From Sporomusa sp. KB1 (GTDB lineage: Bacteria; Bacillota; Negativicutes; Sporomusales; Sporomusaceae), in NCBI RefSeq assembly GCF_007830295.1, contig NZ_VLKC01000002.1:778940-842939 (forward strand): a stretch of DNA of 64,000 nt. Reading direction: 5' to 3'. Numbering within the stretch: position 1 is the stretch's first letter; every line of letters starts with the position of its first letter. This document shows positions 19,661 to 63,640 of the stretch, piece after piece. Below the pieces are notes generated by a model. That model made no database searches. It saw only the letters and a list, made by a program, of their open reading frames with translations, and was not told the origin of the DNA. A program made the translations under genes and the position numbers.

Positions 19661-20683
19661 TCACGCACCAGTACCAAACGAGCAAGCGGGGTACTGGCAA
19701 ACCTCACACTCCAGACATAAGCCGCCCATTCCCAGCTTCACAACCATTGGCCTGGTAATATGCTGACCTGTCAAAACCAATGGCAGAACAAGATCAAACA
19801 CTGTCGTTTTATGATACATTACGCAGCCTGGCAATCCTAAAACCGGTACTTGCCCCAAATACGCCACCATTAGCATTGATCCCGGCAATACAGGCGCACC
19901 ATAGGTTACAATTTCCGCCCCTGCTTTTCTAATTCCGCTGGGAGTAACATCATCAGGGTCAACCGACATGCCTCCAGTTGTCAATATCAGTTCAGCACCA
20001 TTAGCTAGTAAGGATTTCACTGCTTGTGCTATTTCCTCCGCATCATCAGGAACAAGAATGTGCTGCACTACCTGGCAGCCAAATCCTTCTACTTTTGCTT
20101 TTACAACCGGCCCAAACTTATCCTGAATACGTCCATGATAAACCTCACTGCCTGTCGTAATAACACCCACTTTATAAGAATGAAACGGTTTAACGGCAAC
20201 AACCTCGGTTTGCTGGGCAATTTTCTCCACCATTGCTATTTTGGTTTCATCAATCAATAAGGGGATAACCCGGACACTGGCAATCTTATCTCCTTTTTTC
20301 ACCGGCCTGTTGTTATTACGGGTCGCAACAACAATCTCTTCAATCATATTAATACGTGTTAGGAGCTCTTCATTTATAGCAACCATTCCATCATGCCCGG
20401 CGATAAGATTAACCTTGCCTTCACTGGGATCAGTCATGCTAAGTCCTTGCCCCTTTACTGCCTGGGCAAGACGTAGTCCCGCGTCATTTTCATGCAAAAA
20501 TCCTTTTTTCATTTGCCAAACATAAAGATGTTCCTTTCCCAGCTTCAAGAGTTTCGGAATATCTTCTGCTGTAATGATATGTCCTTTTTTAAAGGCTTCA
20601 CCCTTGAATTCACCAGGTATTATTTTAGTAATGTCATGACATAGCACATTGCCTATTGCTTCTTCCACTCTGACTATCTGCAT
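19661..20683 (-). CDS. MoeA-like molybdopterin-binding protein with Cys-rich tail
   Basis: The 340-residue protein starts MQIVRVEEAIGNVLCHDITKI, a shortened MoeA-like N-terminus. It continues with a MoCF-binding domain containing GVITTGSEVYHGR, TTGGMSVDPDDVTP, GAPVLPGSM and GLPGCVMYHKTT. The C-terminus adds GGLCLECEVCQYPACSFGTG, four closely spaced Cys that could bind metal. This family is common beside moeA in Firmicutes that use many Mo/W enzymes and may be a dedicated insertase or storage protein. It lies 22 bases before moeA. Confidence 0.85.
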   Translation of the reverse strand: MQIVRVEEAIGNVLCHDITKIIPGEFKGEAFKKGHIITAEDIPKLLKLGKEHLYVWQMKKGFLHENDAGLRLAQAVKGQGLSMTDPSEGKVNLIAGHDGMVAINEELLTRINMIEEIVVATRNNNRPVKKGDKIASVRVIPLLIDETKIAMVEKIAQQTEVVAVKPFHSYKVGVITTGSEVYHGRIQDKFGPVVKAKVEGFGCQVVQHILVPDDAEEIAQAVKSLLANGAELILTTGGMSVDPDDVTPSGIRKAGAEIVTYGAPVLPGSMLMVAYLGQVPVLGLPGCVMYHKTTVFDLVLPLVLTGQHITRPMVVKLGMGGLCLECEVCQYPACSFGTGA

Positions 20684-20719
20684 GGCTTCTTTCTCCTTAC
20701 TATTTATACTCCCAAAATT

Positions 20720-21154
20720 TCAACCGATCATTTCTATTTCGTCGCCAGCTTTTATCCAGCCTGGGGTAAGCACTATGGTAAAAATGCCTTCTCTAGGCAT
20801 AACGCAGTCTCCTGTCTTTTCCCTGATGGCACACCCCTTGTGACACTCTTTACCGATTTGTGTCACTTCCATCAGTGTTTCCCCTACTTTAAGCTTAGTT
20901 CCTACAGGAAGCTCAAACAAAACAATACCCTCTGTAGTAATGTTTTCAGCAAAACTTCCTGTTTCAAGCTGGTCAAACCCCAGGTTTCTAATCTTATCAA
21001 TACTCTCGTTTCCCAGCAGGCTTACCTGTCTGTGCCAGTTTCCGGCGTGTGCGTCCCCCTGCAAGCCGGAGTTTACTGCAAAATAGCCTTTTTCAATGGC
21101 CCGCTTAGGCTCTCCCTTTTTTTCACTACTATTTACTGCCAGTACTTTTGCCAT
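20720..21154 (-). CDS. MOSC domain protein
   Basis: The 144-residue stand-alone MOSC domain has VNSGLQGDAHAGNWHRQVSLLG and GSFAENITTEGI, with the conserved Cys in IGKECHKGCAIREKTGDC. MOSC domains carry sulfur or bind Mo cofactor; in small stand-alone form they are thought to help sulfuration or delivery. The extra Cys (ECHKGC...GDC) is typical for the Firmicute version found in moa operons. It lies in the operon between moaC and the moeA-like gene. Confidence 0.9.
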   Translation of the reverse strand: MAKVLAVNSSEKKGEPKRAIEKGYFAVNSGLQGDAHAGNWHRQVSLLGNESIDKIRNLGFDQLETGSFAENITTEGIVLFELPVGTKLKVGETLMEVTQIGKECHKGCAIREKTGDCVMPREGIFTIVLTPGWIKAGDEIEMIG

Positions 21155-21208
21155 TGTCTATCCCCCCGTGTTCTTATACATCATAGCATCTCTATACAAT
21201 AACCTTCA

Positions 21209-21685
21209 CTATTGATCTCGCTTAACATGCCCGCTTTTGCCACCCATTTTTTCCATAAGTTTTATATCCGTAATTTCCATCCAGCGGTCAACGGCTTTGC
21301 TCATATCATAGATCGTCATCGCGGCAACACTGACACCACTGATAGCTTCCATCTCCACACCGGTTTTTCCTGTCGTTTTAACCTGACAGCGTATGATTAT
21401 ACTGGAATTTAATTCGTCCATTTCAAACTCAATATCTACCGAAGTCAACATTAGGGGATGGCACATGGGAATAAGACTGGACGTTTGTTTTGCTCCCATT
21501 ATACCAGCTACCTGAGCAACTCCCAGAACGTCCCCTTTTTTGATACCGCCACTCTTTATAGCTTGCAGGGTGCCTGACTGCATGTGAACAATTGCCTGTG
21601 CCGTAGCTGTGCGCACAGTATCATTTTTTTCACTGACATCCACCATGCGCGCGTATCCGGCAGCATTGAAATGTGTAAACTCCAT
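21209..21685 (-). CDS. moaC: Cyclic pyranopterin monophosphate synthase MoaC
   Basis: MoaC converts the MoaA product into cyclic pyranopterin monophosphate. The 158-residue protein has FNAAGYARMVDVSEK, a central ...SLIPMCHPLMLTSVDIEFE and VEMEAISGVSVAAMTIYDMSKAVD with the catalytic Lys region. The length is normal. Its start lies two bases after the moaA stop, so translation is coupled. Confidence 0.96.
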   Translation of the reverse strand: MEFTHFNAAGYARMVDVSEKNDTVRTATAQAIVHMQSGTLQAIKSGGIKKGDVLGVAQVAGIMGAKQTSSLIPMCHPLMLTSVDIEFEMDELNSSIIIRCQVKTTGKTGVEMEAISGVSVAAMTIYDMSKAVDRWMEITDIKLMEKMGGKSGHVKRDQ

Positions 21686-21687
21686 TG

Positions 21688-22668
21688 TTATCCCCCTATT
21701 TGGTACATCTTGCGTTTATTGTCTGCACCCCAACCTTCATCCATATGGTGACGTTGCGGCTTCTCCCTGATTGCCTTGCTGAAGATGTCTATCAGTTTTT
21801 CATCGCTGGCATGATTTTGTAAAGCCAGTCGTAAATTTAACTCCTCTTTGCCAAACAAACAACTGCGAAGTTTACCGTCAGCTGTCATACGAATCCGGTT
21901 GCACTCACCGCAAAAATGATCACTCATGGCACTTATAAAACCAATTGTACCAATTCCACTATGTATGTGGTAGGATTTAGCCGGACCATTGCCTTGTACA
22001 TTTACGCCTTTATATAACTCATATTTTTGTTCAATGATTTCTCGAACCTCATTTACCGTTACCACTCGATCGGTTTTATAAAAAGGCAAATCGCCCACAG
22101 GCATAAACTCGATAAAACGCACATGTAATGGCATTCTTGTTGCTAATTCAACAAAATCCAGTATTTCATGGTCATTAATTCCCTTCATAACCACCGTATT
22201 AATTTTTATTGGTGCCATACCTATTTCTATTGCTTTAGCGATCGAACGAATCACCTCATTCAGACTGCCCCGCCTGGTAATGTATTTGAAAGTTTCCGGG
22301 TTAAGGCTGTCCAAACTAAAGTTAATTCTTGTCAAACCGGCTGCCTTCAACTCTTCTGCCATGTCAGCATACAGCATCCCGTTTGTCGTAATCGCTATAT
22401 CACTAATCCCCGGAATTTGGGCAATGTCTGCAATAAGCTTAGTAATATTTCTGCGAACAAGCGGCTCGCCGCCGGTTAACCTAACTTTTCGAATTCCTAC
22501 CCTGGCACCGATCCTAACGAGACGGGCAATCTCTTCCAGTGTCAGGATACTTGTATGACCAAGATCTGCAAGTCCCTCTTCAGGCATACAATACTTGCAA
22601 CGCAAATTGCATCTATTTGTAACAGAAACACGCAAATAATCGATATTTCTAGCATAACTATCAAACAT
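21688..22668 (-). CDS. moaA: GTP 3',8-cyclase MoaA
   Basis: MoaA is the radical SAM enzyme that starts molybdenum-cofactor synthesis from GTP. The 326-residue protein has the N-terminal CNLRCKYCMPEEG cluster motif and GGEPLVRR. The C-terminal cluster is HFCGECNRIRMTADGKLRSC, and the protein ends in the functional double-glycine tail QIGG. It is the first gene of moaA-moaC-MOSC-moeA2-moeA. Its leader carries a Moco-type RNA, a terminator and a sigma-54 promoter. Confidence 0.97.
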   Translation of the reverse strand: MFDSYARNIDYLRVSVTNRCNLRCKYCMPEEGLADLGHTSILTLEEIARLVRIGARVGIRKVRLTGGEPLVRRNITKLIADIAQIPGISDIAITTNGMLYADMAEELKAAGLTRINFSLDSLNPETFKYITRRGSLNEVIRSIAKAIEIGMAPIKINTVVMKGINDHEILDFVELATRMPLHVRFIEFMPVGDLPFYKTDRVVTVNEVREIIEQKYELYKGVNVQGNGPAKSYHIHSGIGTIGFISAMSDHFCGECNRIRMTADGKLRSCLFGKEELNLRLALQNHASDEKLIDIFSKAIREKPQRHHMDEGWGADNKRKMYQIGG

Positions 22669-22761: not shown

Positions 22762-22895
22762 CAAAACTCATGAAGCGCCTCCTTTCCCAGATTGGGAGGT
22801 AGTGAAATTTCTTTCGCTACCCCGTGAACTAATCGTTCAGACTGCCAGACCATGGATAACTTTAGGTCATACAGCTCGGAGTGCCAGTTATTATT
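22762..22895 (-). promoter_or_regulatory. Molybdenum-cofactor (Moco) RNA motif, putative riboswitch
   Basis: Read on the minus strand, the leader has GGCACTCCGAGC, CCATGGTCTGGCAG and, near the 3' end, CACTACCTCCC with GGGAAAGGAGGCG. The arms CCTCCCAATCTGGGAAAGGAGG pair. These blocks, the position before moaA and the following terminator fit the Moco RNA motif of Mo/W-cofactor genes. I rely on memory of the motif, so a covariance search is needed to confirm it. Confidence 0.72.
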
Positions 22896-22915: not shown

Positions 22916-22932
22916 CGCAAAAATCGTGCCAA
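22916..22932 (-). promoter_or_regulatory. Sigma-54 promoter of the moaA operon
   Basis: Minus strand TTGGCACGATTTTTGCG matches the -24 TGGCAC and -12 TTGC consensus with correct spacing. A start about 12 bases past the GC would place the whole Moco-type RNA in the transcript. Confidence 0.85.
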
Positions 22933-23109: not shown

Positions 23110-23703
23110 TTAATGCACTTCACCCTCGTGGTTATCCAGAAATGCCAGCCCTGGAGAATAGGCTTGACCTAAATATTCTCCAAATGCATAATAGGAGCGG
23201 TCTGAAGCACTACTAATTAATGGATTAATCATACTAGCCATAGGGGTTCCATTTGAATCAAGAATTTCTTCATCTGCTTTGACGCCAAGGATTTGACCAA
23301 TAAATTGCGTGTGAGCCCCCATTTCAATAGCATGAAGGAGTTTGCACTCAAAAGCTAAGGGAAACTCACTAACAAAGGGTGCGTTAACATTATCACTTCT
23401 TATCGGAGTAAGGCCAGTCACGCCAAATTTATCTGTATTTTTACCTGAAACTAGACCAATATAATCTGTTTCTGCTATATGCTGCACCGATGGTATATTA
23501 ATCGTAAATGCTTTCTGTTGAAGAATGTTAGTATACGTCAAGCGTGATTTTCGCAACGAAATTGCTATACATGGGGGAGCCGAGCAACATATCCCGCCCC
23601 ACGCAACAGTCATAATATTAGGCTGATCACTAGCGTCGTAGCTTCCTACAACCCATACCGGCGAGGGCATAGCAAATAATTTAGTTCCTAGGGACTTTTT
23701 CAT
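23110..23703 (-). CDS. Flavin reductase-like FMN-binding protein (flavoredoxin type)
   Basis: The 197-residue protein has PSPVWVVGSYDASDQPNIMTVAWGGICCSAPPCIAISLR, the FMN-binding split-barrel start of the flavin reductase-like/flavoredoxin family. TYTNILQQKAFTINIPS and an ALECKLLHAIE-type segment follow. It would bind FMN and carry electrons in the cytoplasm. It is the last gene of the long minus-strand run that includes the NrfD-linked Mo enzyme. A clear GGGAGGTGGGAG lies before the ATG. Confidence 0.88.
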   Translation of the reverse strand: MKKSLGTKLFAMPSPVWVVGSYDASDQPNIMTVAWGGICCSAPPCIAISLRKSRLTYTNILQQKAFTINIPSVQHIAETDYIGLVSGKNTDKFGVTGLTPIRSDNVNAPFVSEFPLAFECKLLHAIEMGAHTQFIGQILGVKADEEILDSNGTPMASMINPLISSASDRSYYAFGEYLGQAYSPGLAFLDNHEGEVH

Positions 23704-23733
23704 ACTCCCACCTCCCTTAATTAATAAACCATT

Positions 23734-24522
23734 CTAAAATTTAATACGCATTCCATCATAAGCGACACATACATTCTCATAGCTTGCAACTTCCTCAGCG
23801 AGCTGATTTGTGGTCACTGGTTGGCTGTAATGGATAGCCAAATGAGTAATCACAGTTTTTTTGGCTCGAATTTGGTTGCCAAGATCAACGGCCTGCTCTA
23901 TTGACATATGAGCATGGGGAAACCAATTCTCGCCATGAAAAGTTGCATCACATATCAACCAGTCAACCCCACGCACTTTTGCAGCGCTAGCTTCCGGAAG
24001 CCCGGCGGTATCCGGGTAATAGGCAAGCCTATTACCCGTTGATTCCAGCAAAAAACCCGCCGTTTCTATCCCGTGATTTGCAGGCAAAGGAGTCAAGTGT
24101 AATTCGCCCAAACAGTATTGCTTGCTAAACTCCCATGATTTAACCGCAAAAATTTCTGTCAAATTAGGAAACGCATCCGCAAACTGCTTTACTGCACTGG
24201 GTGGCAAAAATATAGGAATCGCTGCGTTTCTGGCTAATTTAACATAATATTCAAGTTCTCCAAGTCCGCCAAAATGATCATAGTGCCAATGCGTCATAAA
24301 TATACAGTCAACCTGGGTAATGTTTTCTCTGATAAGCTGACGCCGTAAATCAGGAGAAGCATCAATAAGTATCTTGCTGTCACCTGTGTCGATGAATGCT
24401 CCACTGCGTGTTCTGGCTAACTCAGGATTGCTTCTGGCTTCCCGGCATCCCACACAATCACAGAAAAAGGAAGGTAAACCAGGTCCTGCCCCGGTCCCCA
24501 GTAATATAAAAGTTGCTTCCAC
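23734..24522 (-). CDS. Metallo-beta-lactamase-fold hydrolase (PhnP-like)
   Basis: The 262-residue protein has the metal motif MTHWHYDHFGGL (HxHxDH) near residue 80 and SPDLRRQL before it. PDTAGLPEASA, HAHMSIEQAVDLG and ITHLAIHYSQP supply further ligands. An N-terminal CDCVGCREARSNPE insertion with Cys is typical of PhnP-type phosphodiesterases and pterin-related MBL proteins such as PqqB. PhnP cleaves cyclic phosphates; here no phosphonate genes are nearby, so the substrate is open. It lies between the GNAT and flavin reductase genes, closely spaced. Confidence 0.85.
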   Translation of the reverse strand: MEATFILLGTGAGPGLPSFFCDCVGCREARSNPELARTRSGAFIDTGDSKILIDASPDLRRQLIRENITQVDCIFMTHWHYDHFGGLGELEYYVKLARNAAIPIFLPPSAVKQFADAFPNLTEIFAVKSWEFSKQYCLGELHLTPLPANHGIETAGFLLESTGNRLAYYPDTAGLPEASAAKVRGVDWLICDATFHGENWFPHAHMSIEQAVDLGNQIRAKKTVITHLAIHYSQPVTTNQLAEEVASYENVCVAYDGMRIKF

Positions 24523-24550
24523 GTCAGTTCGCTCCTCGTTGTACCTATTC

Positions 24551-25027
24551 TTATACGATATATTTATGGCATTCGATGATCATCGCAACAGGCTTACAGT
24601 CCTCTTTGTCCGGACATTCTAAACACTGCTCATCATAAGGCTCAGCCAGTTCGGAAAAATCACAGGCGACAAACCCGTTCTTTTCATAAAAACGTACGGC
24701 ATCACCTTTGGCAACTGTCGTAACCTTGTATAAGCTGTCATTACTATCAAATGAATTTTGGCAGTACTTTTCAGGGTTATTAATCATTTCTTGTAACAAC
24801 TGACTGCCAATTCCCGTGTTACGTCCAGCTTCGTTGACAGCAAATACTAATAAATGAAAGAAGTTGGTATCAAGTTGAGCTAACATTGCCCCAGCTAACA
24901 CTTTATTATCTGATTTTACCAGTACGTGTTCCTCAATATCGCCAGCAAGGCCCATGCCGTAGCCTGTGAATAGAGCCTGTAATTCAGCCTCGTCTTCGCC
25001 AGTGGCAAAAACTATCTCTGTGCACAT
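24551..25027 (-). CDS. GNAT-family acetyltransferase with Cys-rich C-terminal tail
   Basis: The 158-residue protein has the GNAT acetyl-CoA loop NEAGRNTGIGSQLLQEMI (about 87-104) and the VRFYEKNGFVACDF end motif. The C-terminus adds CLECPDKEDC, which could bind metal or an Fe-S cluster. The family acetylates amines; the target is unknown. Its position in the Mo-enzyme operon, 15 bases after the NrfD-like gene, suggests a role with that complex, but this is inference. Confidence 0.8.
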   Translation of the reverse strand: MCTEIVFATGEDEAELQALFTGYGMGLAGDIEEHVLVKSDNKVLAGAMLAQLDTNFFHLLVFAVNEAGRNTGIGSQLLQEMINNPEKYCQNSFDSNDSLYKVTTVAKGDAVRFYEKNGFVACDFSELAEPYDEQCLECPDKEDCKPVAMIIECHKYIV

Positions 25028-25042
25028 AAGTGATACCCCTGC

Positions 25043-26008
25043 TTATTTTTGTGAATTTAACCAACAAGCCTTTTCCCGCCAACGATTTTCCAGCGCAATG
25101 GCCAGCTTGGCGATTTCTTTTCTATTCATTTCATCCTTTTCCTCACCAGGCAAAACAACTCTTACCGCAGCTCTTAAGAAGTCGATTCTGAAACAAGCCC
25201 CGCCAACAAGCACCAGTACTGCGGCCATAACTAACCAGTATATAGAAGTAAATAGCAAGCTAATGACCATTGGTACTAACGTTCCGAAGATAACGACTCC
25301 AGCCCAAAAAGCTGAGCTAAATTCGCCACTCCATAGCTTATTCGCGCCTCGACGAGCCTCCTCGGCCGACGATAGCTTCATTCCTAATACATAGCCAGGT
25401 ATAGCAAACAGCTGGGCAACTAACAAAGCGGCCAATAAATTCTTAATGGTAACAGTATAAGCATTCTCACCATAACCAAATATACACAATACCAGAGTTA
25501 ATGCGGCAGCCCCAGTTGCAGTCCCATTAATTAAGAAAACGCCAATCAGTCCGCCACCATTCCAAAAGCCTCTGCCTTTTGCTTCACCCAACTCTATTCC
25601 CGGGTAGGTAACATAGAGCAGAGCCGCTATAATAGCCAGCACCGCAACAATCGTCTTGAGCCAGCCAAATCCTGCCCAAGGAATAAAACTAAAGAAAAAT
25701 GTTCCATATGCAAATATCAACGGCATATATAAGCTTTGTATGAGTGAGCCAAAGCTCATAACAGAAGCAAAAGGACGCGCGTTAACCAAATGCCCCTTGG
25801 TTTTGTGAGTTAATTCTTCCAGTAGCAGCAATGCACCTACTCCGGCTGCTGCCAAGGCCACGATACTTACCCAGCCGTTAATTTGTCCGGCTATTGGATT
25901 TCCTACCAAGTCTGTTACTGCAGCAATAACAAACATCATCGCTCCCATTGCGGCTAGAAAAAAGTACCACGCCGGTTGACTTCCCCAATATTCCTGCTGT
26001 TTTTCCAT
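25043..26008 (-). CDS. NrfD/DmsC-type membrane anchor subunit
   Basis: The 321-residue integral membrane protein has about eight to nine spans. It starts with WGSQPAWYFFLAAMGAMMFVIA and includes ELTHKTKGHLVNARPFASVMSFGS, as in NrfD/PsrC-family quinone-interacting anchors. These proteins couple a periplasmic or cytoplasmic Fe-S subunit to the menaquinone pool without heme. It follows the four-cluster ferredoxin gene by 14 bases, completing a catalytic-FeS-anchor trio. A basic, soluble C-terminus of about 45 residues is unusual but not unique. Confidence 0.88.
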   Translation of the reverse strand: MEKQQEYWGSQPAWYFFLAAMGAMMFVIAAVTDLVGNPIAGQINGWVSIVALAAAGVGALLLLEELTHKTKGHLVNARPFASVMSFGSLIQSLYMPLIFAYGTFFFSFIPWAGFGWLKTIVAVLAIIAALLYVTYPGIELGEAKGRGFWNGGGLIGVFLINGTATGAAALTLVLCIFGYGENAYTVTIKNLLAALLVAQLFAIPGYVLGMKLSSAEEARRGANKLWSGEFSSAFWAGVVIFGTLVPMVISLLFTSIYWLVMAAVLVLVGGACFRIDFLRAAVRVVLPGEEKDEMNRKEIAKLAIALENRWREKACWLNSQK

Positions 26009-26022
26009 GCTAGCCCCTCCTC

Positions 26023-26565
26023 CTATGGCATAATATAGTAAACTGATGGTTTAGTTCCTAAATGTGAGTACAACGGCTGTGCATTATTCTTCCGGATCAA
26101 TTTCACGATCTCACTGTCAGGATCGTCAAGATCACCAACATGTCTTGCCTTTAACTGACAGGTTTCTACACACCGTGTAACCATACCCTCGTCTAATCGA
26201 TTGAAACACAGGGAGCACTTTTCAACGATTCCATTTTCTTCATTCATTTGACGCACACCATAGGGGCAAACTACCATACAGAATTGACAGCCTACACATT
26301 TTTCCGGGTCAATTGCCACAATACCATCTTCACGGTGATGACTGGCGCCTGTAGGACAGCCATCAACACAGGGGGCATCCTGGCAATGCATACACCCTAT
26401 CGTAATATTATAGGAAGTCAAATTCGGATACTCCCCAATCGGTCCCACTTTGGAAACCTTACAGTATTTCATATCGAAAGGTAAGTTGTTTTCATTTTGG
26501 CAAGCAATCGTGCAGGCATGACAGCCTACACATTTTGTCAAATCAATTAGCATTCCCCAGTGCAT
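26023..26565 (-). CDS. Four-cluster ferredoxin subunit (DmsB/NrfC-like)
   Basis: I chose ATG 26565, which overlaps the TAA of the catalytic-subunit gene and has GGAGGGG ten bases upstream, giving 180 residues. Four [4Fe-4S] groups are visible: CVGCHACTIAC, CMHCQDAPCVDGC, CVGCQFCMVVCPYG and a last group with CSLCFNRLDEG...CVETC. This is the electron-transfer subunit between the NrfD-type anchor and the Mo/W subunit. There is no signal peptide. Confidence 0.94.
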   Translation of the reverse strand: MHWGMLIDLTKCVGCHACTIACQNENNLPFDMKYCKVSKVGPIGEYPNLTSYNITIGCMHCQDAPCVDGCPTGASHHREDGIVAIDPEKCVGCQFCMVVCPYGVRQMNEENGIVEKCSLCFNRLDEGMVTRCVETCQLKARHVGDLDDPDSEIVKLIRKNNAQPLYSHLGTKPSVYYIMP

Positions 26566-28760
26566 TAGTCGTTCCCCTCCACTTTCGAAATCCGACACAT
26601 AACGCCTCTAGAGCAAAAACTGCCGCAAAGCTCATCTAAAGTGTCCGGATCGTCATCCACGCATACATTAATATTGGATTCAAATACGCCCATTAAGCTA
26701 GGATCTTTTACTTCCTTTTCAGGGAACCACCAGCCACGTTCTGCCTGAATAACATCAGGTGCTACAGCCGAGGTGATAAATGCGGTCTGCTTAACCTTGC
26801 CGGTTGGCGTTTCAATCCAAACCCATTCGCCCTCTTTGATGTTACATTTTTGAGCAAGAGCCGGATTAATGGCAACTCGTGGATAAGGCCGTAACAATCT
26901 GATTCTTGTTATTTCCCGGTGTTCAGAATGGAAGAACGGCATAAAACCACCACCGGCAACAAGACTTAATGGATATTGCTCCGCCAATTCCGGTTTGGCT
27001 TCAGCGCTGAATGGCGGTGCTACATAGTGAGGCAGCGGATCATAACCAAGCTGTTCAAAGATGGATATTTTAAGTTCAACTTTACCTGACGGAGTAGCCA
27101 CACCACGAGTTTCATATTTGCGGTAATCACGCTCGGCAAAATGCATCCGGTACAGCTCAACAAATTCTTCATAACTTTCAAGCTCTAAGCCTAGCGGATC
27201 AAGTCGGTACTTGAATATTTCTTCATCAGTTTTCCAAGGCCAATACTCTGCTTGCCCCATTCTATGACCAAGTTCTGACCAAAACTCGGTATCAGTCTTA
27301 CGCTCATACATTGGTTCAATTGCTTTCTCGGAAGCAATCAGCCAATCAGAAACCCCGTACGTGGTAGTCATAACCGGTCTTTCCAACCAGGAAGCAGCAG
27401 GCAAAATATAGTCAGCCAGCATAGCTGACGGCGTCATCCAATACTCCATTACTACATACAAATCAAGCTTTTTTAATCCTTCATAAACAAGTTTGGAGTT
27501 TGCATACGATACTAACGGATTATTAGCCAATGTGATACAGGCTTTTACCGGGTAGGGTTTTTCTGTTGCCATAGCTCTAAATACTGTTGAGGGATTGGCT
27601 TCACAGAACCATTCTGCCGGGATACTTTTACCCCATACGCGCAGCATATTTTCGGTTAACATTTCGTAACCTGGCCAGGAGTTCAGTTTAAACCGGTCTG
27701 ACCCCAACTGTTTCGCCCGCTGCTCTTCTGGCAGCATATCATTTAATTCCATTTCCCAGTCAGTAATGAAGGTTGGGTGAGGACCAGGCATTACATCGCC
27801 GCCCGGAACGTCTAAATTGCCGCAAATGATACGCAACGCAACACGTGCTTGAGCGGAAGCTGCACTGCCTTTTCCTAATTGGTCTGTAGCAACTCCCCAT
27901 ACGATACAAGCCGGCTTGCTCATCGCGTACATTCTGGCAGTCTCAGCAATCAATTCCGGAGATAGACCGGTTTTTTCGGCTGCCCATTCAGGCGTGTATT
28001 CTTCTACTCTTTCACTTAATTCTTCAAATCCTACTGTCCATTCAGCAATGAAGTCATAATCGCATAAGCCTTCGTTAATAATAACATTCAGCCAGGCAAG
28101 TGCCAGAGCATTGTCCGAACCTGGCTTTAAAGGCATCCAGATGTCAGCTTTCGAGGCGGTTTCACTGTAGTTCGGATCAATAACAATAATTTTCGTTCCA
28201 TTCGCTTTAGCTTGTAACATACCACGCATTTCCGGCAAATAGGAAGACCCGCCATTATGACCCCATATAACAGCACATTTTGCTCCCGCAATTTCGGGGT
28301 CGAAAGCGGCCCAACCGTAGGACGCTGCCTCGGTTAAAAAGTTAGGAATCCAGCAAACAGGAGCTGTATGAACAACATTAGGGCTACCCACGAGATTGAA
28401 GAAACGTCTCCGGGCAAAATCATCAGTCCGGTTAGTGCCCCCGGTAGTAGTGATTGTCTCAGCACCATACTTTGCTTTTAAAGCAGTTAAACGTGCCGCA
28501 ATGTCATCTAATGCTTCTTCCCAGGACACGCGTTTGAATTCACCTGACCCGCGTTTACCTACCCTTTTAAGAGGATAGTTAATCCGGTTGGGGTGGTTGA
28601 GGTGATCTAATGCCGAAGCTCCCCGAGGACATTGCGCCCCCGCATTAAACGGATGCTCCGGATCTCCCACAACCTTTGTTATCACTCCGTTTTCCACTGT
28701 TGCCAGCATACCACAATTCATATGGCAGAAGTGGCAAGCCGTCTTTTTTTCTTCACTCAT
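26565..28760 (-). CDS. DMSO-reductase-family molybdopterin oxidoreductase, NrfD-linked
   Basis: The 731-residue protein has a canonical FS0 cluster: C9-x2-C12-x3-C16-x27-C44. The metal-ligand region TAPVCWIPNFL (Cys136) suggests a Cys-ligated Mo or W. Later segments LPAASWLERP, GGGFMPFFHSEHREI and AERGWWFPEKE are pterin-binding hallmarks. There is no Tat signal, so the complex should face the cytoplasm. It is grouped with a four-cluster ferredoxin and an NrfD anchor, as in polysulfide/DMSO-type reductases. The substrate is unknown. An acetylene-hydratase role is unlikely because the Asp beside the first Cys pair is not present. Confidence 0.93.
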   Translation of the reverse strand: MSEEKKTACHFCHMNCGMLATVENGVITKVVGDPEHPFNAGAQCPRGASALDHLNHPNRINYPLKRVGKRGSGEFKRVSWEEALDDIAARLTALKAKYGAETITTTGGTNRTDDFARRRFFNLVGSPNVVHTAPVCWIPNFLTEAASYGWAAFDPEIAGAKCAVIWGHNGGSSYLPEMRGMLQAKANGTKIIVIDPNYSETASKADIWMPLKPGSDNALALAWLNVIINEGLCDYDFIAEWTVGFEELSERVEEYTPEWAAEKTGLSPELIAETARMYAMSKPACIVWGVATDQLGKGSAASAQARVALRIICGNLDVPGGDVMPGPHPTFITDWEMELNDMLPEEQRAKQLGSDRFKLNSWPGYEMLTENMLRVWGKSIPAEWFCEANPSTVFRAMATEKPYPVKACITLANNPLVSYANSKLVYEGLKKLDLYVVMEYWMTPSAMLADYILPAASWLERPVMTTTYGVSDWLIASEKAIEPMYERKTDTEFWSELGHRMGQAEYWPWKTDEEIFKYRLDPLGLELESYEEFVELYRMHFAERDYRKYETRGVATPSGKVELKISIFEQLGYDPLPHYVAPPFSAEAKPELAEQYPLSLVAGGGFMPFFHSEHREITRIRLLRPYPRVAINPALAQKCNIKEGEWVWIETPTGKVKQTAFITSAVAPDVIQAERGWWFPEKEVKDPSLMGVFESNINVCVDDDPDTLDELCGSFCSRGVMCRISKVEGND

Positions 28761-28803
28761 CCTTTATCCCCCAATTTCATACAATATTATCGGTTTTTTA
28801 GCT

Positions 28804-29754
28804 TTAGCGAACTGTTAGCTGTATGGCTTTTTGCGGACATTGCCCGGCACAGGTATAGCAGGCACAACATTTCTCGGCAGCTGATGCACTTGCCGTTTGC
28901 TTCCCATCCATAGTCACCATCCTAATTACGGCTTCCGGACAAAACGCTTCACATAAACCACAGCCGGTGCACTGGTTGCTGTCAATACGAACATCAACCG
29001 AATTACCTCCTACCGGTTCAGCACAAGCTACTTTATCTATAACTGGCGGCATATAGATCCGCCGCCGAGCCTCCGGAATACTTTTTACCGATAATTTTTC
29101 CAGTGCCCCTACCAGTGTGGGCAACTGTTGAAACGGTACAGAAACATAGGCTTCAAAATCACTAATATCACTAATGGCTCTGGCACCATAACAACCGAAA
29201 GAAATATTCATTTGTTGAGTTTTCATAACCTGTACCGTCAAATCAGCACAAGTTGAGTTGTAACCTGAAGTATGAAAATTATGCCGTTCCCCCGTGCTAT
29301 AGCTGGCTGCACACATTAACCACATCATTTGTTCAGGATACATAGTAAAAATAACTACATCTGGTTCAAAAGTGGCATCCTCAAGCGGAGCAAGCACAGT
29401 CGCCGCATAGGTACCTGCTTCAAACTCCTGCCTTGTGGCTATCATTTTCTGTGCACATTCAATTGTCGGCAATTTTTTAAACAACAGATATAATTCACCA
29501 GAACGCAATTTAGGGGACATAGGAACCAACCCCATAATTGCAGCTCCGTCCGGGCAGGCGTGCCGACTGGGTGGCATATATAAACTATTACCTCGCCGAG
29601 CAAGGGTGATAGCCTGGCAGTGTCTCAGCGGAACCGAAGGCTGAGTTACTTTTTCCGGAACTTTTTCACCGGGCTTTACTAGTTTTACCGCAACTGGTGA
29701 CCACCTAAGTGTCAACATTTTTGTAAGTGCTGTGGCAAGTTCATTATTATTCAC
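28804..29754 (-). CDS. DUF169 protein with C-terminal 2x[4Fe-4S] ferredoxin domain
   Basis: I chose the GTG at 29754 with AAAGGAGA upstream, giving about 316 residues; a longer frame overlaps the upstream gene. Residues ~1-235 are DUF169: LRWSPVAVKL, RHCQAITLARRG, PDGAAIMGLVP and FGCYGAR. The C-terminal part has CTGCGLCEAFCPEAVI and CCACYTCAGQCPQKAI. DUF169 proteins occur with Mo/W or corrinoid metabolism but have no fixed reaction. It lies between the HdrD-like and catalytic-subunit genes. Confidence 0.85.
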   Translation of the reverse strand: MNNNELATALTKMLTLRWSPVAVKLVKPGEKVPEKVTQPSVPLRHCQAITLARRGNSLYMPPSRHACPDGAAIMGLVPMSPKLRSGELYLLFKKLPTIECAQKMIATRQEFEAGTYAATVLAPLEDATFEPDVVIFTMYPEQMMWLMCAASYSTGERHNFHTSGYNSTCADLTVQVMKTQQMNISFGCYGARAISDISDFEAYVSVPFQQLPTLVGALEKLSVKSIPEARRRIYMPPVIDKVACAEPVGGNSVDVRIDSNQCTGCGLCEAFCPEAVIRMVTMDGKQTASASAAEKCCACYTCAGQCPQKAIQLTVR

Positions 29755-29773
29755 GCTGCTTGGTCTCCTTTTC

Positions 29774-30874
29774 TTACCTGTCCTCTGCCATAATTTGTTC
29801 CCATATTTTTTCCCCATCAGCACCGGTGAGCATTTTAGCTACCCGTGCTTTCGCCCCAGTGAATTCTTTATTTTGATCCAGTAACAAGTGTAACGCGTGA
29901 GTTACGGGAATAGGCGAACTAAAAACATCAAATTTCAACACACAACTTAGACAGTACCCTACCAGAATATCGGCGCCGGACAACTTGACTTCATTCATTC
30001 TTTGCTCTACGAGTTTTTCCGTTAATTCCGGATTAAAGTGAGAAATCTGCCCACCGCTGCCGCAACAAATTGCTTGCTCTTTACTGTGTTTCATTTCTAT
30101 TATAGAAAAGCCACTTTGCTCCAATGCTTGACGCACTTGACTGGCAAACGTAAGTTCAAACCGATCCGGACAGGCATCATGGATGGTGCACTTGATTTTG
30201 TCAGTCCGCTTAAGTGGCTCAATTTTTAACACTTCATACACTGTCTGAACACTAACATCACAAAATTCAAAGACGTTTTTCAATTGATAATAACAACCTG
30301 GGCAGGCAGTAATAAGCCTGGTAATGTTATGTTTTTGCACAAATTCCCTTAACCCCGCCTGCATGATTTCAGCTCTTTGCTGCAAACCCATTTGAAGCAA
30401 AGGTTTGCTACAACACTCTGTCCATATGCCCTGACAGTTACAGTCAGTCTGTAATCTGCAATAAACCTCACGCGTTAGTTCCGGAGAATACGTCAGCAAA
30501 GTACAGCCGGGAAAAAACCAAGTTCCACCACTGCCGACATTTTCTATATCACGATAGTCAATACCATAATAGCTGCGGAAAACATTCATAACATTATTTT
30601 TTCTATCAGGAAATAGATACCGGTATTCATCAATATCCAATTCACCATTAGCTACTGCTTCATTCCTTCGGCTGGCAAACATCTCTTTGGGGCTTAGTCC
30701 TTGTGGACAAACAGCCTCACATGCACCGCATAATGAACAGCTAAAGGCATCGTCAACCTCGACCCCTTGCTTTGCTATTATCGCCGGTGTTTTTCCTGTT
30801 GCTTTTAGAAATTGACAAATTTCAGTACATTCACCACATTCAATACAGTTTTTCGCTAGTCTATCCATCCACAA
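29774..30874 (-). CDS. HdrD/GlpC-like CCG-domain iron-sulfur protein
   Basis: The 366-residue protein has two N-terminal [4Fe-4S] motifs (CIECGECTEIC and CSLCGACEAVCPQG). Two CCG domains follow, with FPGCTLLTY...CCSKPLL and HDACPDRFE...AICCGSGGQ. Such proteins handle thiol/disulfide or lactate/glycerol-3-phosphate-type electron transfer. In this operon it could feed electrons to the DUF169-ferredoxin and Mo enzyme. It lies between the DUF2064 gene and the DUF169 gene. Confidence 0.9.
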   Translation of the reverse strand: MWMDRLAKNCIECGECTEICQFLKATGKTPAIIAKQGVEVDDAFSCSLCGACEAVCPQGLSPKEMFASRRNEAVANGELDIDEYRYLFPDRKNNVMNVFRSYYGIDYRDIENVGSGGTWFFPGCTLLTYSPELTREVYCRLQTDCNCQGIWTECCSKPLLQMGLQQRAEIMQAGLREFVQKHNITRLITACPGCYYQLKNVFEFCDVSVQTVYEVLKIEPLKRTDKIKCTIHDACPDRFELTFASQVRQALEQSGFSIIEMKHSKEQAICCGSGGQISHFNPELTEKLVEQRMNEVKLSGADILVGYCLSCVLKFDVFSSPIPVTHALHLLLDQNKEFTGAKARVAKMLTGADGEKIWEQIMAEDR

Positions 30875-30915
30875 CTCCCCTTAAGACCACCACGACTTAC
30901 CAAAGAATTTTATAA

Positions 30916-31743
30916 TCAACGGTGCGCTACTGCCGTGCTTTCCAGACCGATTTCATTTAAAACTGCAATGGTGTTTGCCGGTATCTTGATGCTTTTATCG
31001 CAGCGTGCTGCTAATTCCAACGCCTTGATAACCGGAATCATGCTTGCTAAATCCACTGGAATATCAACGTCAGGCGCGGCTTCAACTATACCAAATGGAA
31101 TATCTTGCCGTACCGCTTTAGTTATCAACATATCCAACGCAGTTGTCCCATCAGTATTGTAAAATACCCGGTTGAAATCAAATGGCGTCGTACAGGTAAA
31201 ACCAACAACGGAAAAGCCACCTTCCTGACAAGCTCCTTCCACTAACCCTGCTCCCAGTTTTTGGGATACATTATCAATTTTACGGGCCACTTTTAGACCA
31301 TATTCACTCGTTGCCAACTGTTCCAGTTTGCAAACAGCATCCTTTAGGATGGAAGGCTGCAAGCTAGGCAGGTCTCCACCGACAATGATCACACTATCAG
31401 CTAAACGTTCCGAAGCCCCGTTTTTCAGAATATAATCAGCAGCATATTGCATACATTGATCAAAGTTGCCGCCTCGGTCAGCATAAACTTCTTTAATTTG
31501 CGAACGGTCGGAAATCCTGGACAACAGTTTTTCCAGGTATTCGCGATCTCCATCATGATTGTAACAAACCCGGATGTCACCACTTTTGGCCTCGATACAA
31601 ACGTTAATTACGTCTAGCAGACAGCCTTCATAAAAAGCCATAGCCTCTTCCGGAGTTAATATGCCGCCCCGCTCTGTAGTAAGCCGGGTTTTAGTTTCTC
31701 CGGCCTTAGGAACTTTGGTAAATACAACTATTGCATTGCGCAT
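30916..31743 (-). CDS. DUF2064 (TIGR04282-type) glycosyl/nucleotidyl-transferase-like protein
   Basis: The 275-residue protein starts RNAIVVFTKVPKAGETKTRL, the KxPxxGxxKTRL motif of the DUF2064 family. It has IIVGGDLPSLQPSIL near residue 123-137. The fold resembles nucleotide-diphosphate sugar transferases such as MobA and CofC. This raises the possibility of a cofactor-nucleotide role, but no reaction is established. It is the promoter-proximal gene of the Mo-enzyme operon, downstream of two sigma-54-like sites. The AGGGGGAATAGT site precedes the ATG. Confidence 0.82.
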   Translation of the reverse strand: MRNAIVVFTKVPKAGETKTRLTTERGGILTPEEAMAFYEGCLLDVINVCIEAKSGDIRVCYNHDGDREYLEKLLSRISDRSQIKEVYADRGGNFDQCMQYAADYILKNGASERLADSVIIVGGDLPSLQPSILKDAVCKLEQLATSEYGLKVARKIDNVSQKLGAGLVEGACQEGGFSVVGFTCTTPFDFNRVFYNTDGTTALDMLITKAVRQDIPFGIVEAAPDVDIPVDLASMIPVIKALELAARCDKSIKIPANTIAVLNEIGLESTAVAHR

Positions 31744-31879: not shown

Positions 31880-31896
31880 TGCAAAATTCATGCCAA
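31880..31896 (-). promoter_or_regulatory. Sigma-54 promoter, proximal, of the DUF2064-Mo enzyme operon
   Basis: Minus strand TTGGCATGAATTTTGCA has the -24 GG and -12 GC at the right distance. It lies about 140 bases upstream of the DUF2064 start. Confidence 0.78.
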
Positions 31897-32096: not shown

Positions 32097-32113
32097 TGCA
32101 AATTTTATGCCAA
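32097..32113 (-). promoter_or_regulatory. Second sigma-54-like site upstream of the same operon
   Basis: Minus strand TTGGCATAAAATTTGCA also fits the -24/-12 pattern, about 217 bases upstream of the proximal site. Two such sites in tandem over a gene-free 570-bp interval suggest dual promoters or a decoy. The rest of 31744-32312 is AT-rich and shows no gene I can support. Confidence 0.65.
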
Positions 32114-37017: not shown

Positions 37018-37168
37018 AAAAACCCCTCTTTTCTTTTATTAATTTTTAATACGATATTTACTGTTAAACCGCACTTGCCACAGATAACGCATCGCTTACC
37101 GAGAAAGTGCTTGTTTACTCTTTGGTGTCAGAACTTTTACCTCATCAGCCACAATAAAATTGGATTCC

Positions 37169-37519
37169 TTACTTAGAAAACAGCACCATTTTAGGTTTTT
37201 CTTCCATCTTCTTAGCAAGTTCTTCAATGGTTCCATAATACATAACATTGCTTTGGCAATGGTGCACGCAGGTCGGTTTCCGGCCTTCTTCAACCCGCTT
37301 GGAACAAAGATCACAAAGCGATGTGGGAACAGGAATGTAATTCCATTCCCAGCTGCCATCTGGATTCTGACGGGGACCTTCTTCTACTACTTTAATCCCG
37401 TATTGACCTACTTGGAGGTCTAATTCTTTCTTACATGCCACTTCGCAGCTATGACAATTTGTACAATATTCATAATCGATTAGTAAGCCATAGCGACCTT
37501 TTTCATTATTTTTTGACAT
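37169..37519 (-). CDS. Two-cluster ferredoxin subunit of MoOR1
   Basis: From the ATG at 37519 (eight bases after GGGGGG; a TTG six bases further upstream lacks spacing) the protein has 116 residues. CTNCHSCEVAC and CDLCSKRVEEGRKPTCVHHC bind two [4Fe-4S] clusters. It overlaps the MoOR1 stop by 14 bases, so translation is coupled. It is a short electron-transfer beta subunit, smaller than DmsB types, and there is no membrane anchor gene. The product is identical to that of copy 2. Confidence 0.92.
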   Translation of the reverse strand: MSKNNEKGRYGLLIDYEYCTNCHSCEVACKKELDLQVGQYGIKVVEEGPRQNPDGSWEWNYIPVPTSLCDLCSKRVEEGRKPTCVHHCQSNVMYYGTIEELAKKMEEKPKMVLFSK

Positions 37520-39833
37520 AGCCAAAACCCCCCAGCTTGGTTACTATTTTCGACGGTAATTCTTTATCATTCTCAGGGGTCAATTTATATACCTTACAAA
37601 TGGTTGATTTATACGGAGCGCCATAATGAGTCGGACCGTGTACGCCCATCGTTGTAAGGTTGTTGATGTTGCTATCAAATACCCCAAACAAAGTAGGTTC
37701 TGCTCCCTCTTTTTCCGGGAACCACCAGCCGTGTTCGCCGCGAACTACTTTAGGATCAAGACCTGCATTAAATCTTGCGATCTGTTTGCACTTGCCACGG
37801 CGATTTTCAAGCCATACCCAGTCTCCTTCAATGATTCCCAATGCTTTTGCTGTTTCCGGGTTGATATCCATCATCGGTTGCGGATGGATTTCACGCATGG
37901 TTGGTAACTGTCTGTGTTCGGAGTGGAAGCAACCCCACAGCCGGTTACCAGTGGTAAGAATCAACGGATATTCTTTCATAAGCTCCGGTGTGGTATTAGG
38001 ACCTTCATTTGGTTCAATATGGAAACCAAGGGAATCAAATCCCCAAACATCAAACAAGGTGGAGGTAATTTCGTACTTGCCGGTTGGAGTTACGAAACCT
38101 GGCTGACCATCTTTACGGAGCAAGCCTTTTTCGTATTTCTTATAGGTGTAATCCCAATCCCACCAGTCTTGCACTTTTTCAACAAGATCAGCAAAGTCAT
38201 AATCTACGCCATCGTCATCTTTAAGGAAATCATCCAGGAAGTCTACGTCGGTATTGTATTGTTCAAAGCGGTCAGGTCTGATCCGCTTGCCTAAGTCAAG
38301 AACAATTTGCTCGTCTGTTTTGGTATCTTCGTAGGTGTCAGCCGCTTTAGTCAGGGCACGTAGCGGGGTCCACCATGATCTAAAGCTGTTACGTTCAACA
38401 CTCATCGCAACAGGCAGAACCAAATCGGCGCAAGCCACTGCCGTCGGGGTCATGAACAAGTCAACAACTACGTTGAAAGGTACTTTTTTCATAGCCGCAT
38501 ATACGCGAGGCGCTTCACCGGCCATGTTGGTAATTGGATTGGTTCCTTGCATCCACAGCATTTGCACAGGATACGGCAGGCCGCTTTCCAGGGTTTCCAG
38601 AAGTTTATCAGGCGGGATAAACGGAGTGTAACCAGATTCATGGATAGGGGACTCATAGGTGCCAATTCGCTTTAACAGCATTTCTTCCGATATATTTTCC
38701 AAACCACTGCCATATTTTTTACCACGGTTGTAAGCATACCGTTGTAACACCATGCCGCCTGGTACGTCAATGTTGCCGGTGATTGCCATTAAATCTGTGA
38801 TTAAGCAAGAAGCTTCCATGGCTGCCATCTGCATATCAATAGCCAGACCCCATTGAATAGCTCCATTTTTGGCATTTGCATACATACGTGCCGCTTTTAT
38901 GATCAAATCTTTAGGAATCCAGGTAATTTCCGCTACTTTTTCCGGCGTATATTCCTGTACTCTTTCGACTAACTCATCAAAACCATATGTCCAATTTTCA
39001 ACAAAATCTTCATCATAAAGTTTCTCATTGATAACCACGTGAAGGATACCAAGAGCAAGGGCAGCGTCAGTACCAGGACGAATCTTCAACCAGGCATCTG
39101 CTCTGGCTGCCAGCCAAGTCAGGGCAGGGTCTACAACAACTAATTTGGTACCAAGTCTCATCATATCCACAAGCCAGTGACCAAGGAAACCGTCACCATT
39201 AGACACCAGCGGATTGTTGCCCCAAACTAGAATCACTTCCGGCTTCTTCCATTCAGGACGGGCTTCACGCAGCGGGTGAGTCTGCGAGCAGTCAGCAATC
39301 AGGCAGTCACCGGCTTTAATCAAATTGGCTGTCATCCGTGGCTGATAGCAGGAGTCTGCACTCAGGAAGCCAAAGGACACATTCGGGCTACCAAAAATGG
39401 TACGCGTGATTACTGCTGGCTGCCACATAGCGTTACGGCCTGTACCAACCAAGGTAACAATGCTTTCTACACCGTGATTTTCTTTGATGTCATTATATTT
39501 GCTTTCAATCAGATCATAAGCTTGATCCCAGGTAATTCGTTCCCACTTATTCTCGCCTCTTTCCCCAACCCTTTTAAGAGGCCATTTCAAGCGTTCGGGA
39601 CTGTACACCTGCTCAACCATATTGATGCAACGCAAACATAATCTGCCACGGTTAACCGGAGAATTGGGATCACCCTCAATTTTCTCCAGCTTGCCATTCT
39701 TCGTGTACAAAAGTACTCCGCAACTGCAGTGACACCCTGGAGCCGTCCACACTGCGGTACGAGTTACGTCATACTCGCCTTCCTGCCAACGGGCTGCCGT
39801 TTTATAAAGCTCTTTGTTAATTTCTTCAGACAT
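37506..39833 (-). CDS. DMSO-reductase-family molybdopterin oxidoreductase, copy 1 (MoOR1)
   Basis: The 775-residue protein belongs to the bis-pterin family. Signs are the WPLKRVGERGENKWERITWDQ linker, GNNPLVSNGDGFLGHW, VDPALTWLAARADAW, HSEHRQLPTM and RGEHGWWFPEKE. Cys162 in LSADSCYQPR is the likely Mo/W ligand. The N-terminal cluster is unusual: C34-x3-C38-x27-C66 is present but the first Cys of C-x2-C is Ala31, while Cys36 is extra. No Tat signal is present, so the site is cytoplasmic. It forms a pair with the ferredoxin that follows. The substrate is unknown. Confidence 0.93.
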   Translation of the reverse strand: MSEEINKELYKTAARWQEGEYDVTRTAVWTAPGCHCSCGVLLYTKNGKLEKIEGDPNSPVNRGRLCLRCINMVEQVYSPERLKWPLKRVGERGENKWERITWDQAYDLIESKYNDIKENHGVESIVTLVGTGRNAMWQPAVITRTIFGSPNVSFGFLSADSCYQPRMTANLIKAGDCLIADCSQTHPLREARPEWKKPEVILVWGNNPLVSNGDGFLGHWLVDMMRLGTKLVVVDPALTWLAARADAWLKIRPGTDAALALGILHVVINEKLYDEDFVENWTYGFDELVERVQEYTPEKVAEITWIPKDLIIKAARMYANAKNGAIQWGLAIDMQMAAMEASCLITDLMAITGNIDVPGGMVLQRYAYNRGKKYGSGLENISEEMLLKRIGTYESPIHESGYTPFIPPDKLLETLESGLPYPVQMLWMQGTNPITNMAGEAPRVYAAMKKVPFNVVVDLFMTPTAVACADLVLPVAMSVERNSFRSWWTPLRALTKAADTYEDTKTDEQIVLDLGKRIRPDRFEQYNTDVDFLDDFLKDDDGVDYDFADLVEKVQDWWDWDYTYKKYEKGLLRKDGQPGFVTPTGKYEITSTLFDVWGFDSLGFHIEPNEGPNTTPELMKEYPLILTTGNRLWGCFHSEHRQLPTMREIHPQPMMDINPETAKALGIIEGDWVWLENRRGKCKQIARFNAGLDPKVVRGEHGWWFPEKEGAEPTLFGVFDSNINNLTTMGVHGPTHYGAPYKSTICKVYKLTPENDKELPSKIVTKLGGFGYVKK

Positions 39834-39948
39834 GCTTTTCCCTCCTTAACTCTTTTGGGTAACATTAGTACAACTGAGACGCTGTTTATCGGCCCCCCTA
39901 CTATCTAAAACTAAAATCAATAACATTCATGGTACCGCTTACTAATAA

Positions 39949-41988: not shown

Positions 41989-42037
41989 TCAGCTTACTAT
42001 GGCGCAATGTTATTCTTCCTACTACAAAAGGTGTTCC

Positions 42038-44702: not shown

Positions 44703-44820
44703 GCCTTGCCCTCCTTAACTCTTTTTGGATAACATTAATTCAACTGAAACTGTTTTATTCGATCCCCTCTACTACTTAGAAATAAATCGAAAATATTCAA
44801 TGTTACCACTTTTCTAATAT

Positions 44821-63484: not shown

Positions 63485-63640
63485 AGTTAAAAAAAGGAAG
63501 CCTGATTTACCAGACTTCCTTCGCACAATACGGGCAGGCACGAAAATTACTCTTCATACCCTTCGGTCATCACTTCCACATGGGCAATGATGACTTGGAA
63601 CTCATCTTATGATTATAATCATTCTTGATATGACTATAAA
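63485..63640 (-). pseudogene. Second copy of the HVEVMTEGYEE-ending remnant with terminator
   Basis: The frame ends ...FQVIIAHVEVMTEGYEE at 63547-63549 and opens only after an in-frame TAA 15 codons upstream. A hairpin AGGAAG-T-CTG/CAG-G-CTTCCT with T7 follows (63485-63520). It is a partner of 48215-48390. The wider gap 63242-63774 has no intact gene. Confidence 0.5.

What the first reader, a model, noticed from the sequence alone, without database searches (positions are those of the whole stretch)
23110..31743. Nine-gene redox operon joining HdrD-like, DUF169-ferredoxin and an NrfD-linked Mo enzyme
The order DUF2064-HdrD-like-DUF169/ferredoxin-MoOR-four-cluster ferredoxin-NrfD-GNAT-MBL-flavin reductase is closely spaced and on one strand. 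It combines a soluble CCG electron donor and a membrane quinone module on one catalytic subunit. That suggests electron bifurcation or quinone-linked reduction of an unknown compound. DUF169 and the GNAT with a CLEC...EDC tail are of unknown role in such a complex.
Basis: partly seen in the sequence, partly recalled or inferred. Interest (0 to 1): 0.52.

Follow-up and report, generated by a model that had tools for sequence, protein, structure and literature searches.

The report
Molybdenum enzyme with obligate helper genes
In a Sporomusa acetogen, a quinone-linked molybdenum or tungsten enzyme of unknown substrate is encoded with a set of uncharacterised helper genes that is inherited almost only together with that enzyme family, which makes the helpers good candidates for an unknown step in building or driving such enzymes.

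Summary
The nine genes are real, on one strand, with gaps of -50 to 43 bases, and keep their order in 6 of 6 other same-genus genomes that carry the enzyme. The catalytic subunit resembles acetylene hydratase most among solved structures but has His for its catalytic Asp13.

Comparison shows three modules: (1) enzyme, ferredoxin and NrfD, an ordinary quinone-linked trio; (2) a core of DUF2064, DUF169-ferredoxin, GNAT and a PhnP-like hydrolase, present in 20 of 20 long loci of relatives, with the enzyme absent from 9 of these 20 loci; (3) an HdrD-like protein, usually with the core. Core marker and enzyme clade occur in exactly the same 17 of 380 genomes of the class, and in another order in 14 each of 73, 13 shared. 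Sigma-54-like sites precede core, enzyme and cofactor genes; a second moaA-moaC operon next door has a Moco riboswitch.

Best reading: a sigma-54-linked Mo/W enzyme with a dedicated accessory pathway. What that pathway makes is inferred, not shown. Bifurcation has no support.

The parts
32097..32113 (-). sigma-54-like site, distal (11 of 13 consensus positions)
   Evidence: sequence match only
31880..31896 (-). sigma-54-like site (12 of 13), 136 bases before DUF2064
   Evidence: a site at the same place in all five other Sporomusa-type loci L092-L095 and L097
30916..31743 (-). DUF2064, CofC/FbiD-like nucleotidyltransferase fold (core cassette)
29774..30874 (-). HdrD-like protein: dicluster ferredoxin plus two CCG domains
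28804..29823 (-). DUF169 fused to 2x[4Fe-4S] ferredoxin (core cassette, search marker)
26565..28760 (-). molybdopterin oxidoreductase, clade A, acetylene-hydratase-like with His13
26023..26598 (-). four-cluster ferredoxin subunit
25043..26008 (-). NrfD membrane subunit
24551..25027 (-). GNAT with four invariant Cys (core cassette)
23734..24522 (-). PhnP-like metallo-beta-lactamase-fold hydrolase (core cassette)
23110..23703 (-). flavin-reductase-like protein (7 of 20 long loci only)
22916..22932 (-). sigma-54-like site (12 of 13) of the moaA operon
22764..22893 (-). Moco riboswitch RF01055, 73.8 bits, followed by a terminator-like hairpin at 22756-22726
19661..22668 (-). co-regulated second Moco set: MoaA, MoaC, MOSC, MoeA-like
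   Evidence: names of MOSC and MoeA given by reading the sequence, not by a profile call

Best explanation
The operon encodes one co-inherited system: a Mo/W enzyme plus a dedicated accessory cassette. SHOWN: a molybdopterin oxidoreductase of a distinct clade (A, sister to B) with a multi-cluster ferredoxin and an NrfD subunit; a core cassette (DUF2064, DUF169-ferredoxin, GNAT, PhnP-like hydrolase) whose marker tracks clade A/B genome by genome; an HdrD-like protein usually in the same genomes; sigma-54-like sites shared by core, enzyme and Moco genes. INFERRED: the enzyme is cytoplasmic (no leader peptide seen) and exchanges electrons with menaquinone through ferredoxin and NrfD, as other NrfD-linked Mo enzymes do. 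INFERRED, my commitment: the core is an accessory pathway that makes, tailors or inserts a small phosphorylated, probably nucleotide-linked component needed by this enzyme clade, most likely its Mo/W-pterin cofactor. DUF2064 would transfer a nucleotide, the PhnP-like hydrolase would cut a phosphodiester, GNAT would acylate, and DUF169-ferredoxin with the HdrD-like protein would supply electrons or thiol chemistry. The substrate of the enzyme is unknown; acetylene hydration is unlikely.
For: Co-inheritance: same 17 of 380 genomes; 14 each, 13 shared, of 73 (Fisher 2e-12, genomes treated as independent); 16 of 17 cassette genomes outside the Negativicutes have an A/B enzyme. Core constant in 20 of 20 long loci. 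Moco context: a MoaA-like gene in 13 of 20 long loci and moaC, MOSC and MoeA-like genes in 8 each; two or more moaC in 13 of 17 cassette genomes against 10 of 363 others; MobA in L109 and L119. DUF2064 model is closest to a putative nucleotide-sugar transferase (3cgx), then FbiD and CofC; the hydrolase is PhnP-like. Sigma-54-like sites before 17 of 34 cassette, 7 of 9 enzyme, 8 of 14 Moco and 10 of 103 other units.
Against: The nine-gene operon carries no Moco riboswitch while the moaA operon does, which speaks against plain Moco synthesis. Outside Sporomusa-type loci and L096 the riboswitch was found in only 1 of 23 loci. None of the core proteins reaches a named equivalog cut-off. No biochemical data. 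In 7 of 20 long loci no MoaA-like gene lies in the locus. G452 has the enzyme without the marker and G395 the cassette without the enzyme, though both may be incomplete assemblies.
Confidence: 0.4

Rival explanations
1. One reading: the products form one electron-transfer assembly in which the HdrD-like protein and DUF169-ferredoxin feed a quinone-linked Mo enzyme, perhaps with bifurcation; GNAT, MBL and DUF2064 are helpers.
For: Iron-sulfur proteins in one operon; HdrD orthologue next to the clade-B enzyme in two Pelobacter-like genomes; HdrD present in 5 of 7 genomes whose cassette lacks it.
Against: No bifurcating flavoprotein among the nine; HdrD not found in G021 (99% complete) although it has the enzyme twice; the core outlasts the enzyme at the locus in 9 of 20 long loci and three of its four proteins are not redox proteins.
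Confidence: 0.25
2. The core works on the substrate or product side: DUF2064, GNAT and the hydrolase activate or process an organic compound (for instance a phosphate ester) that the Mo/W enzyme reduces or oxidises.
For: The core enzymes are typical of small-molecule pathways; some loci add an OYE-family reductase, an APH-type kinase, a nucleoside hydrolase or a BioB-like radical SAM protein.
Against: These extra genes vary from locus to locus, and Moco genes are the more common neighbours. No transporter is conserved with the core.
Confidence: 0.25
3. Only co-regulation: the core and the enzyme are expressed together with Moco supply under sigma-54, without a direct biochemical link.
For: Other Mo enzymes of the window that have no core beside them also have sigma-54-like sites (39965, 44837).
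Against: The core marker follows clade A/B and not Moco use (MoaC in 206 of 380) nor the number of Mo enzymes: G400, with 57 candidates but no A/B enzyme, lacks it.
Confidence: 0.1

Closest known systems
Acetylene hydratase (Syntrophotalea acetylenica, PDB 2e7z)
   Same: Best solved relative of the catalytic subunit over almost the full length (9e-141); Cys metal ligand and N-terminal cluster Cys kept
   Different: Asp13 is His, Lys48 is Arg; acetylene hydratase is a soluble monomer (PMC12096430, passages), here there are ferredoxin and NrfD subunits
NrfD-linked Mo enzymes of the PsrABC/PhsABC kind
   Same: Catalytic, four-cluster ferredoxin and NrfD subunits in that order
   Different: Catalytic subunit scores 312.6 against the PhsA cut-off of 694; no leader peptide seen in the sequence; accessory core is extra
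CofC/FbiD guanylyltransferases
   Same: Fold of the DUF2064 model
   Different: TIGR04282 score 73.8 against cut-off 134; nearest structure is a DUF2064-like protein of unproven function (3cgx)
PhnP cyclic phosphodiesterase
   Same: HxHxDH and CxCxxC motifs, sequence match 3e-25 to 3g1p
   Different: 132.1 bits against the equivalog cut-off of 272.25; no phosphonate genes in the operon
HdrD / HdrB-HdrC type proteins
   Same: Dicluster ferredoxin plus two CCG domains
   Different: No equivalog cut-off reached; no HdrA or HdrE in the operon

Membership tests
DMSO reductase (MopB) superfamily | Molybdop_Fe4S4, Molybdopterin and Molydop_binding domains | tested here: met
   all three over the Pfam cut-off
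Acetylene hydratase | catalytic Asp13 | tested here: not met
   His at that place in the window, in 13 of 15 clade-A and 20 of 21 clade-B rows (others gapped). His also occurs in 17 of 31 other rows
Acetylene hydratase | Lys48 | tested here: not met
   Arg; residue number recalled, its place fixed by the alignment
Acetylene hydratase | Cys ligand to the metal (Cys141) | tested here: met
   Cys in 67 of 67 rows
Acetylene hydratase | hydrates acetylene | not testable with these tools
   needs assay
PhsA/PsrA thiosulfate or polysulfide reductase | NCBIfam PhsA cut-off (694 bits) | tested here: not met
   312.6 bits
NrfD-linked membrane complex | NrfD subunit with matching ferredoxin | tested here: met
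   PF03916 83.6 bits, Fer4_11 82.8 bits
Flavin-based electron bifurcation | FAD-binding bifurcating subunit (HdrA, Etf or NuoF kind) | tested here: not met
   none among the nine proteins
CofC/FbiD guanylyltransferase | fold | tested here: met
CofC/FbiD guanylyltransferase | guanylylation of a phospho-acid | not testable with these tools
   needs assay
TIGR04282 (DUF2064-type, named for arsenosugar synthesis) | curated cut-off 134 bits | tested here: not met
   73.8 bits
PhnP | curated cut-off 272.25 bits | tested here: not met
   132.1 bits
PhnP | HxHxDH metal site and CxCxxC site | tested here: met
   invariant in 17 of 17 aligned sequences; that CxCxxC binds the extra zinc of PhnP is recalled
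sigma-54 regulon | -24/-12 element upstream, enriched among relatives | tested here: met
sigma-54 regulon | transcription lost without RpoN | not testable with these tools
   needs mutant and RNA-seq

The most novel reading that the evidence does not exclude
The core cassette makes an undescribed form of the molybdenum/tungsten pterin cofactor, for example with another nucleotide or an acylated side chain, which only this clade of acetylene-hydratase-like, quinone-linked enzymes uses. This would explain the exact co-inheritance, the private second Moco gene set, and a nucleotidyltransferase-fold protein, a phosphodiesterase-like protein and an acetyltransferase in one cassette.
Probability: 0.2. 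Interest if true: 0.85.

Novelty: new variant of a known kind. Interest (0 to 1): 0.55.

Why it matters
Three uncharacterised families (this type of DUF2064, DUF169-ferredoxin and a four-Cys GNAT) gain a concrete context: they are inherited with one clade of Mo/W enzymes in acetogens, sulfate reducers and Pelobacter-like bacteria. If they tailor or insert its cofactor, the known chemistry of Mo/W cofactor assembly grows by a branch; if they feed it electrons, a soluble route into quinone-linked Mo enzymes is found. A cultured host, Sporomusa ovata, carries the same operon (L093), so the question can be tested directly.

Tried and rejected
Alternative molybdopterin synthase: I asked whether the core replaces MoaE. 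MoaE (PF02391) is in 18 of 380 genomes of the class and MoaC in 206, but at least 11 of the 17 cassette genomes do have a MoaE match, so lack of MoaE is not tied to the cassette. Rejected.

Acetylene hydratase: rejected on Asp13 and Lys48. His13 is not unique to clades A and B (17 of 31 other rows), so I do not claim it as a signature.

HdrD as a dispensable gene: first suggested by its absence from 6 of 20 long loci, then weakened, since 5 of 7 such genomes have it elsewhere (G016, G380, G381, G384, G385); it was not found in G021 and in the 65%-complete G024 (G033 and G387 were controls and have it).

Fold of DUF169: model pLDDT 74.8. Foldseek and VIA-align matched essentially the ferredoxin part, and the sequence profile too.

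Literature, only in the held open-access library: DUF169 (16 papers), DUF2064 (0), COG2043/COG3222/PF02596/PF09837/TIGR04282 (3), acetylene hydratase + Sporomusa (0), acetylene hydratase + molybdopterin + acetogen (5), TrsS + radical SAM + seleno (1), Formimonas warabiya (12), Sporomusa + molybdopterin + sigma-54 (0), Sporomusa + molybdopterin oxidoreductase (5), a five-term Moco search (0). Nothing that I saw describes this gene set. Passages only were read in PMC5322559, PMC8762117, PMC4001038, PMC10100899, PMC6895022, PMC9768040, PMC12096430 and PMC7483475; all other papers only as search listings.

Weak points of my counts: searches used a simple longest-ORF caller that misses genes in GC-rich loci (L100, L103, L120), so (tblastn) is the one used for gene content. 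Some of the 103 control units lie near the cassette. Units starting within 300 bases of a contig end were dropped. Fisher tests treat related genomes as independent. The tree was the quick kind, and one of 67 selected rows was left out for length.
Full report
What is there. The window lies in a 6.06 Mb genome of a Negativicute whose nearest named relative at this locus is Sporomusa silvacetica (catalytic subunit 98%). In 6 of 6 other same-genus genomes that carry the catalytic gene all nine keep their order; two more genus members, G001 and G003, lack it.

The catalytic subunit. Its best solved relative is acetylene hydratase (9e-141). The Cys metal ligand is kept. Asp13, described as specific to that subfamily and as needed for activity (PMC12096430, passages), is His, and Lys48 is Arg. 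A quick tree of 66 Mo-enzyme rows from my loci puts the window's protein in clade A (15 rows, support 99), sister to clade B (21 rows, support 100; A and B together 95); the other copies of the window's own genome fall outside. The ferredoxin and NrfD subunits are of the common quinone-linked kind. I see no leader peptide on the catalytic subunit in the sequence and infer a cytoplasmic active site.

The nine genes are three modules. A scan of the genome collection with the DUF169-ferredoxin alignment gave 29 loci: Sporomusa species, Moorella stamsii and M. sulfitireducens, Candidatus Formimonas warabiya, Desulfosporosinus, Peptococcaceae, Syntrophomonadaceae, and two Desulfuromonadaceae/Pelobacter genomes among others. 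By tblastn, DUF2064, DUF169-ferredoxin, GNAT and MBL are in 20 of the 20 loci of 15 kb or more; the other 9 loci are shorter pieces (over all 29: 27, 29, 25 and 25). Of the 20 long loci, HdrD-like is in 14, an A/B enzyme in 11 and the flavin reductase in 7. In the Sporomusa operon the enzyme trio is set into the middle of this core. In other genomes the core runs on into Moco genes: in L072, the same contig as L096, DUF2064-HdrD-DUF169-GNAT-MBL is followed by MoeA-like, moaA, moaC and MOSC genes, with the enzyme further off.

Co-inheritance. In the window's class, DUF169-ferredoxin (E 1e-30) is in 17 of 380 genomes and the A/B enzyme (E 1e-200) in 17 of 380, and they are the same 17. In the order that holds Desulfosporosinus sp. 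SRJS8 each is in 14 of 73, 13 shared. The exceptions are G452 (enzyme only) and G394 (marker only at these thresholds; it holds a partial 51% enzyme gene). Of 17 genomes outside the Negativicutes, chosen for having the cassette, 16 have an A/B enzyme; G395, a MAG of 2.0 Mb, does not. The link is to the clade and not to Mo use in general: MoaC is in 206 of 380 genomes, and G400, with 57 Mo-enzyme candidates but no A/B enzyme, lacks the marker.

Cofactor genes and control. 13 of 17 cassette genomes have two or more moaC matches against 10 of 363 others. In the window the second set (moaA, moaC, MOSC, MoeA-like) sits just downstream behind its own sigma-54-like site (22932), a Moco riboswitch (22764-22893) and a terminator-like hairpin. 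The riboswitch is in 6 of 6 of L092-L097 but in 0 of 7 of L098-L104, 1 of 11 and 0 of 5 of the remaining loci. The nine-gene operon has sigma-54-like sites at 31896 and 32113 and no riboswitch. Over the 29 loci such sites precede 17 of 34 cassette units, 7 of 9 enzyme units, 8 of 14 Moco units and 10 of 103 other units (cassette against other, Fisher 2e-6). Three Peptococcaceae carry an rpoN gene inside the cassette (L106, L115, L116). In L105 a sigma-54-like site and a Moco riboswitch lead an ABC importer with a Peripla_BP_2 binding protein.

What the core might do. The DUF2064 model (pLDDT 89.2) matches a putative nucleotide-sugar transferase (3cgx) best and then the guanylyltransferases FbiD and CofC. 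The hydrolase is PhnP-like, with CxCxxC and HxHxDH motifs invariant in 17 of 17 aligned sequences. GNAT has four invariant Cys in 16 of 16. DUF169 keeps Cys69, 90, 192 and 211 in 28 of 28, besides the ferredoxin part. None of them reaches the curated cut-off of a named equivalog. A nucleotidyltransferase fold, a phosphodiesterase-like protein and an acetyltransferase beside Moco genes make tailoring or insertion of the metal-pterin cofactor my first choice. A substrate-side pathway fits nearly as well, and the lack of a Moco riboswitch on the core speaks against simple Moco synthesis.

The HdrD-like protein. Where the cassette lacks it, an orthologue is usually elsewhere: 5 of 7 such genomes; not found in G021 and in the incomplete G024. 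In the two Pelobacter-like genomes it lies about 340-350 bases from the clade-B enzyme gene, on the other strand. No bifurcating flavoprotein is encoded among the nine.

Verdict. A real, conserved, sigma-54-linked gene system of a known enzyme superfamily with an uncharacterised and nearly strictly co-inherited accessory cassette.

Noticed in passing
window 63500-63612 (-) and 61118-63241 (-): A second Moco riboswitch (40.2 bits, gathering 36) lies 258 bases before a sigma-54 activator gene (Sigma54_activat, PAS, HTH_8), which would tie a regulator to Mo/W cofactor level.
   Followed up: partly
window about 37125-39900 and 41994-44770 (-): Two near-identical tandem copies (offset 4869 bases, 99.6-100% over about 2.5 kb) of another molybdopterin oxidoreductase gene, 37506-39833 and 42375-44702, each with a sigma-54-like site 115-118 bases upstream; ends of the repeat are approximate.
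   Followed up: partly
L047-L053, e.g. L052:11540-12856: Between the clade-B Mo enzyme unit and a third Mo enzyme (clade C) lies a radical SAM gene related to TrsS (390 of 490 bits) with an HMPTM zinc ribbon, a domain named after a pterin methylase.
   Followed up: no
class of the window, 380 genomes: MoaC is found in 206 of 380 genomes but MoaE in 18 of 380, with weak scores (23-34 bits): most of these bacteria have either a very divergent molybdopterin synthase or another one.
   Followed up: partly
L105:3279-6572: A sigma-54-like site and a Moco riboswitch lead an ABC importer with a Peripla_BP_2 binding protein, a likely molybdate or tungstate importer.
   Followed up: no
L106, L115, L116: An rpoN (sigma-54) gene lies inside the cassette, between DUF2064 and the HdrD-like gene, in three Peptococcaceae.
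   Followed up: no
window 447-648 (-): Cobalamin riboswitch, 89.9 bits.
   Followed up: no
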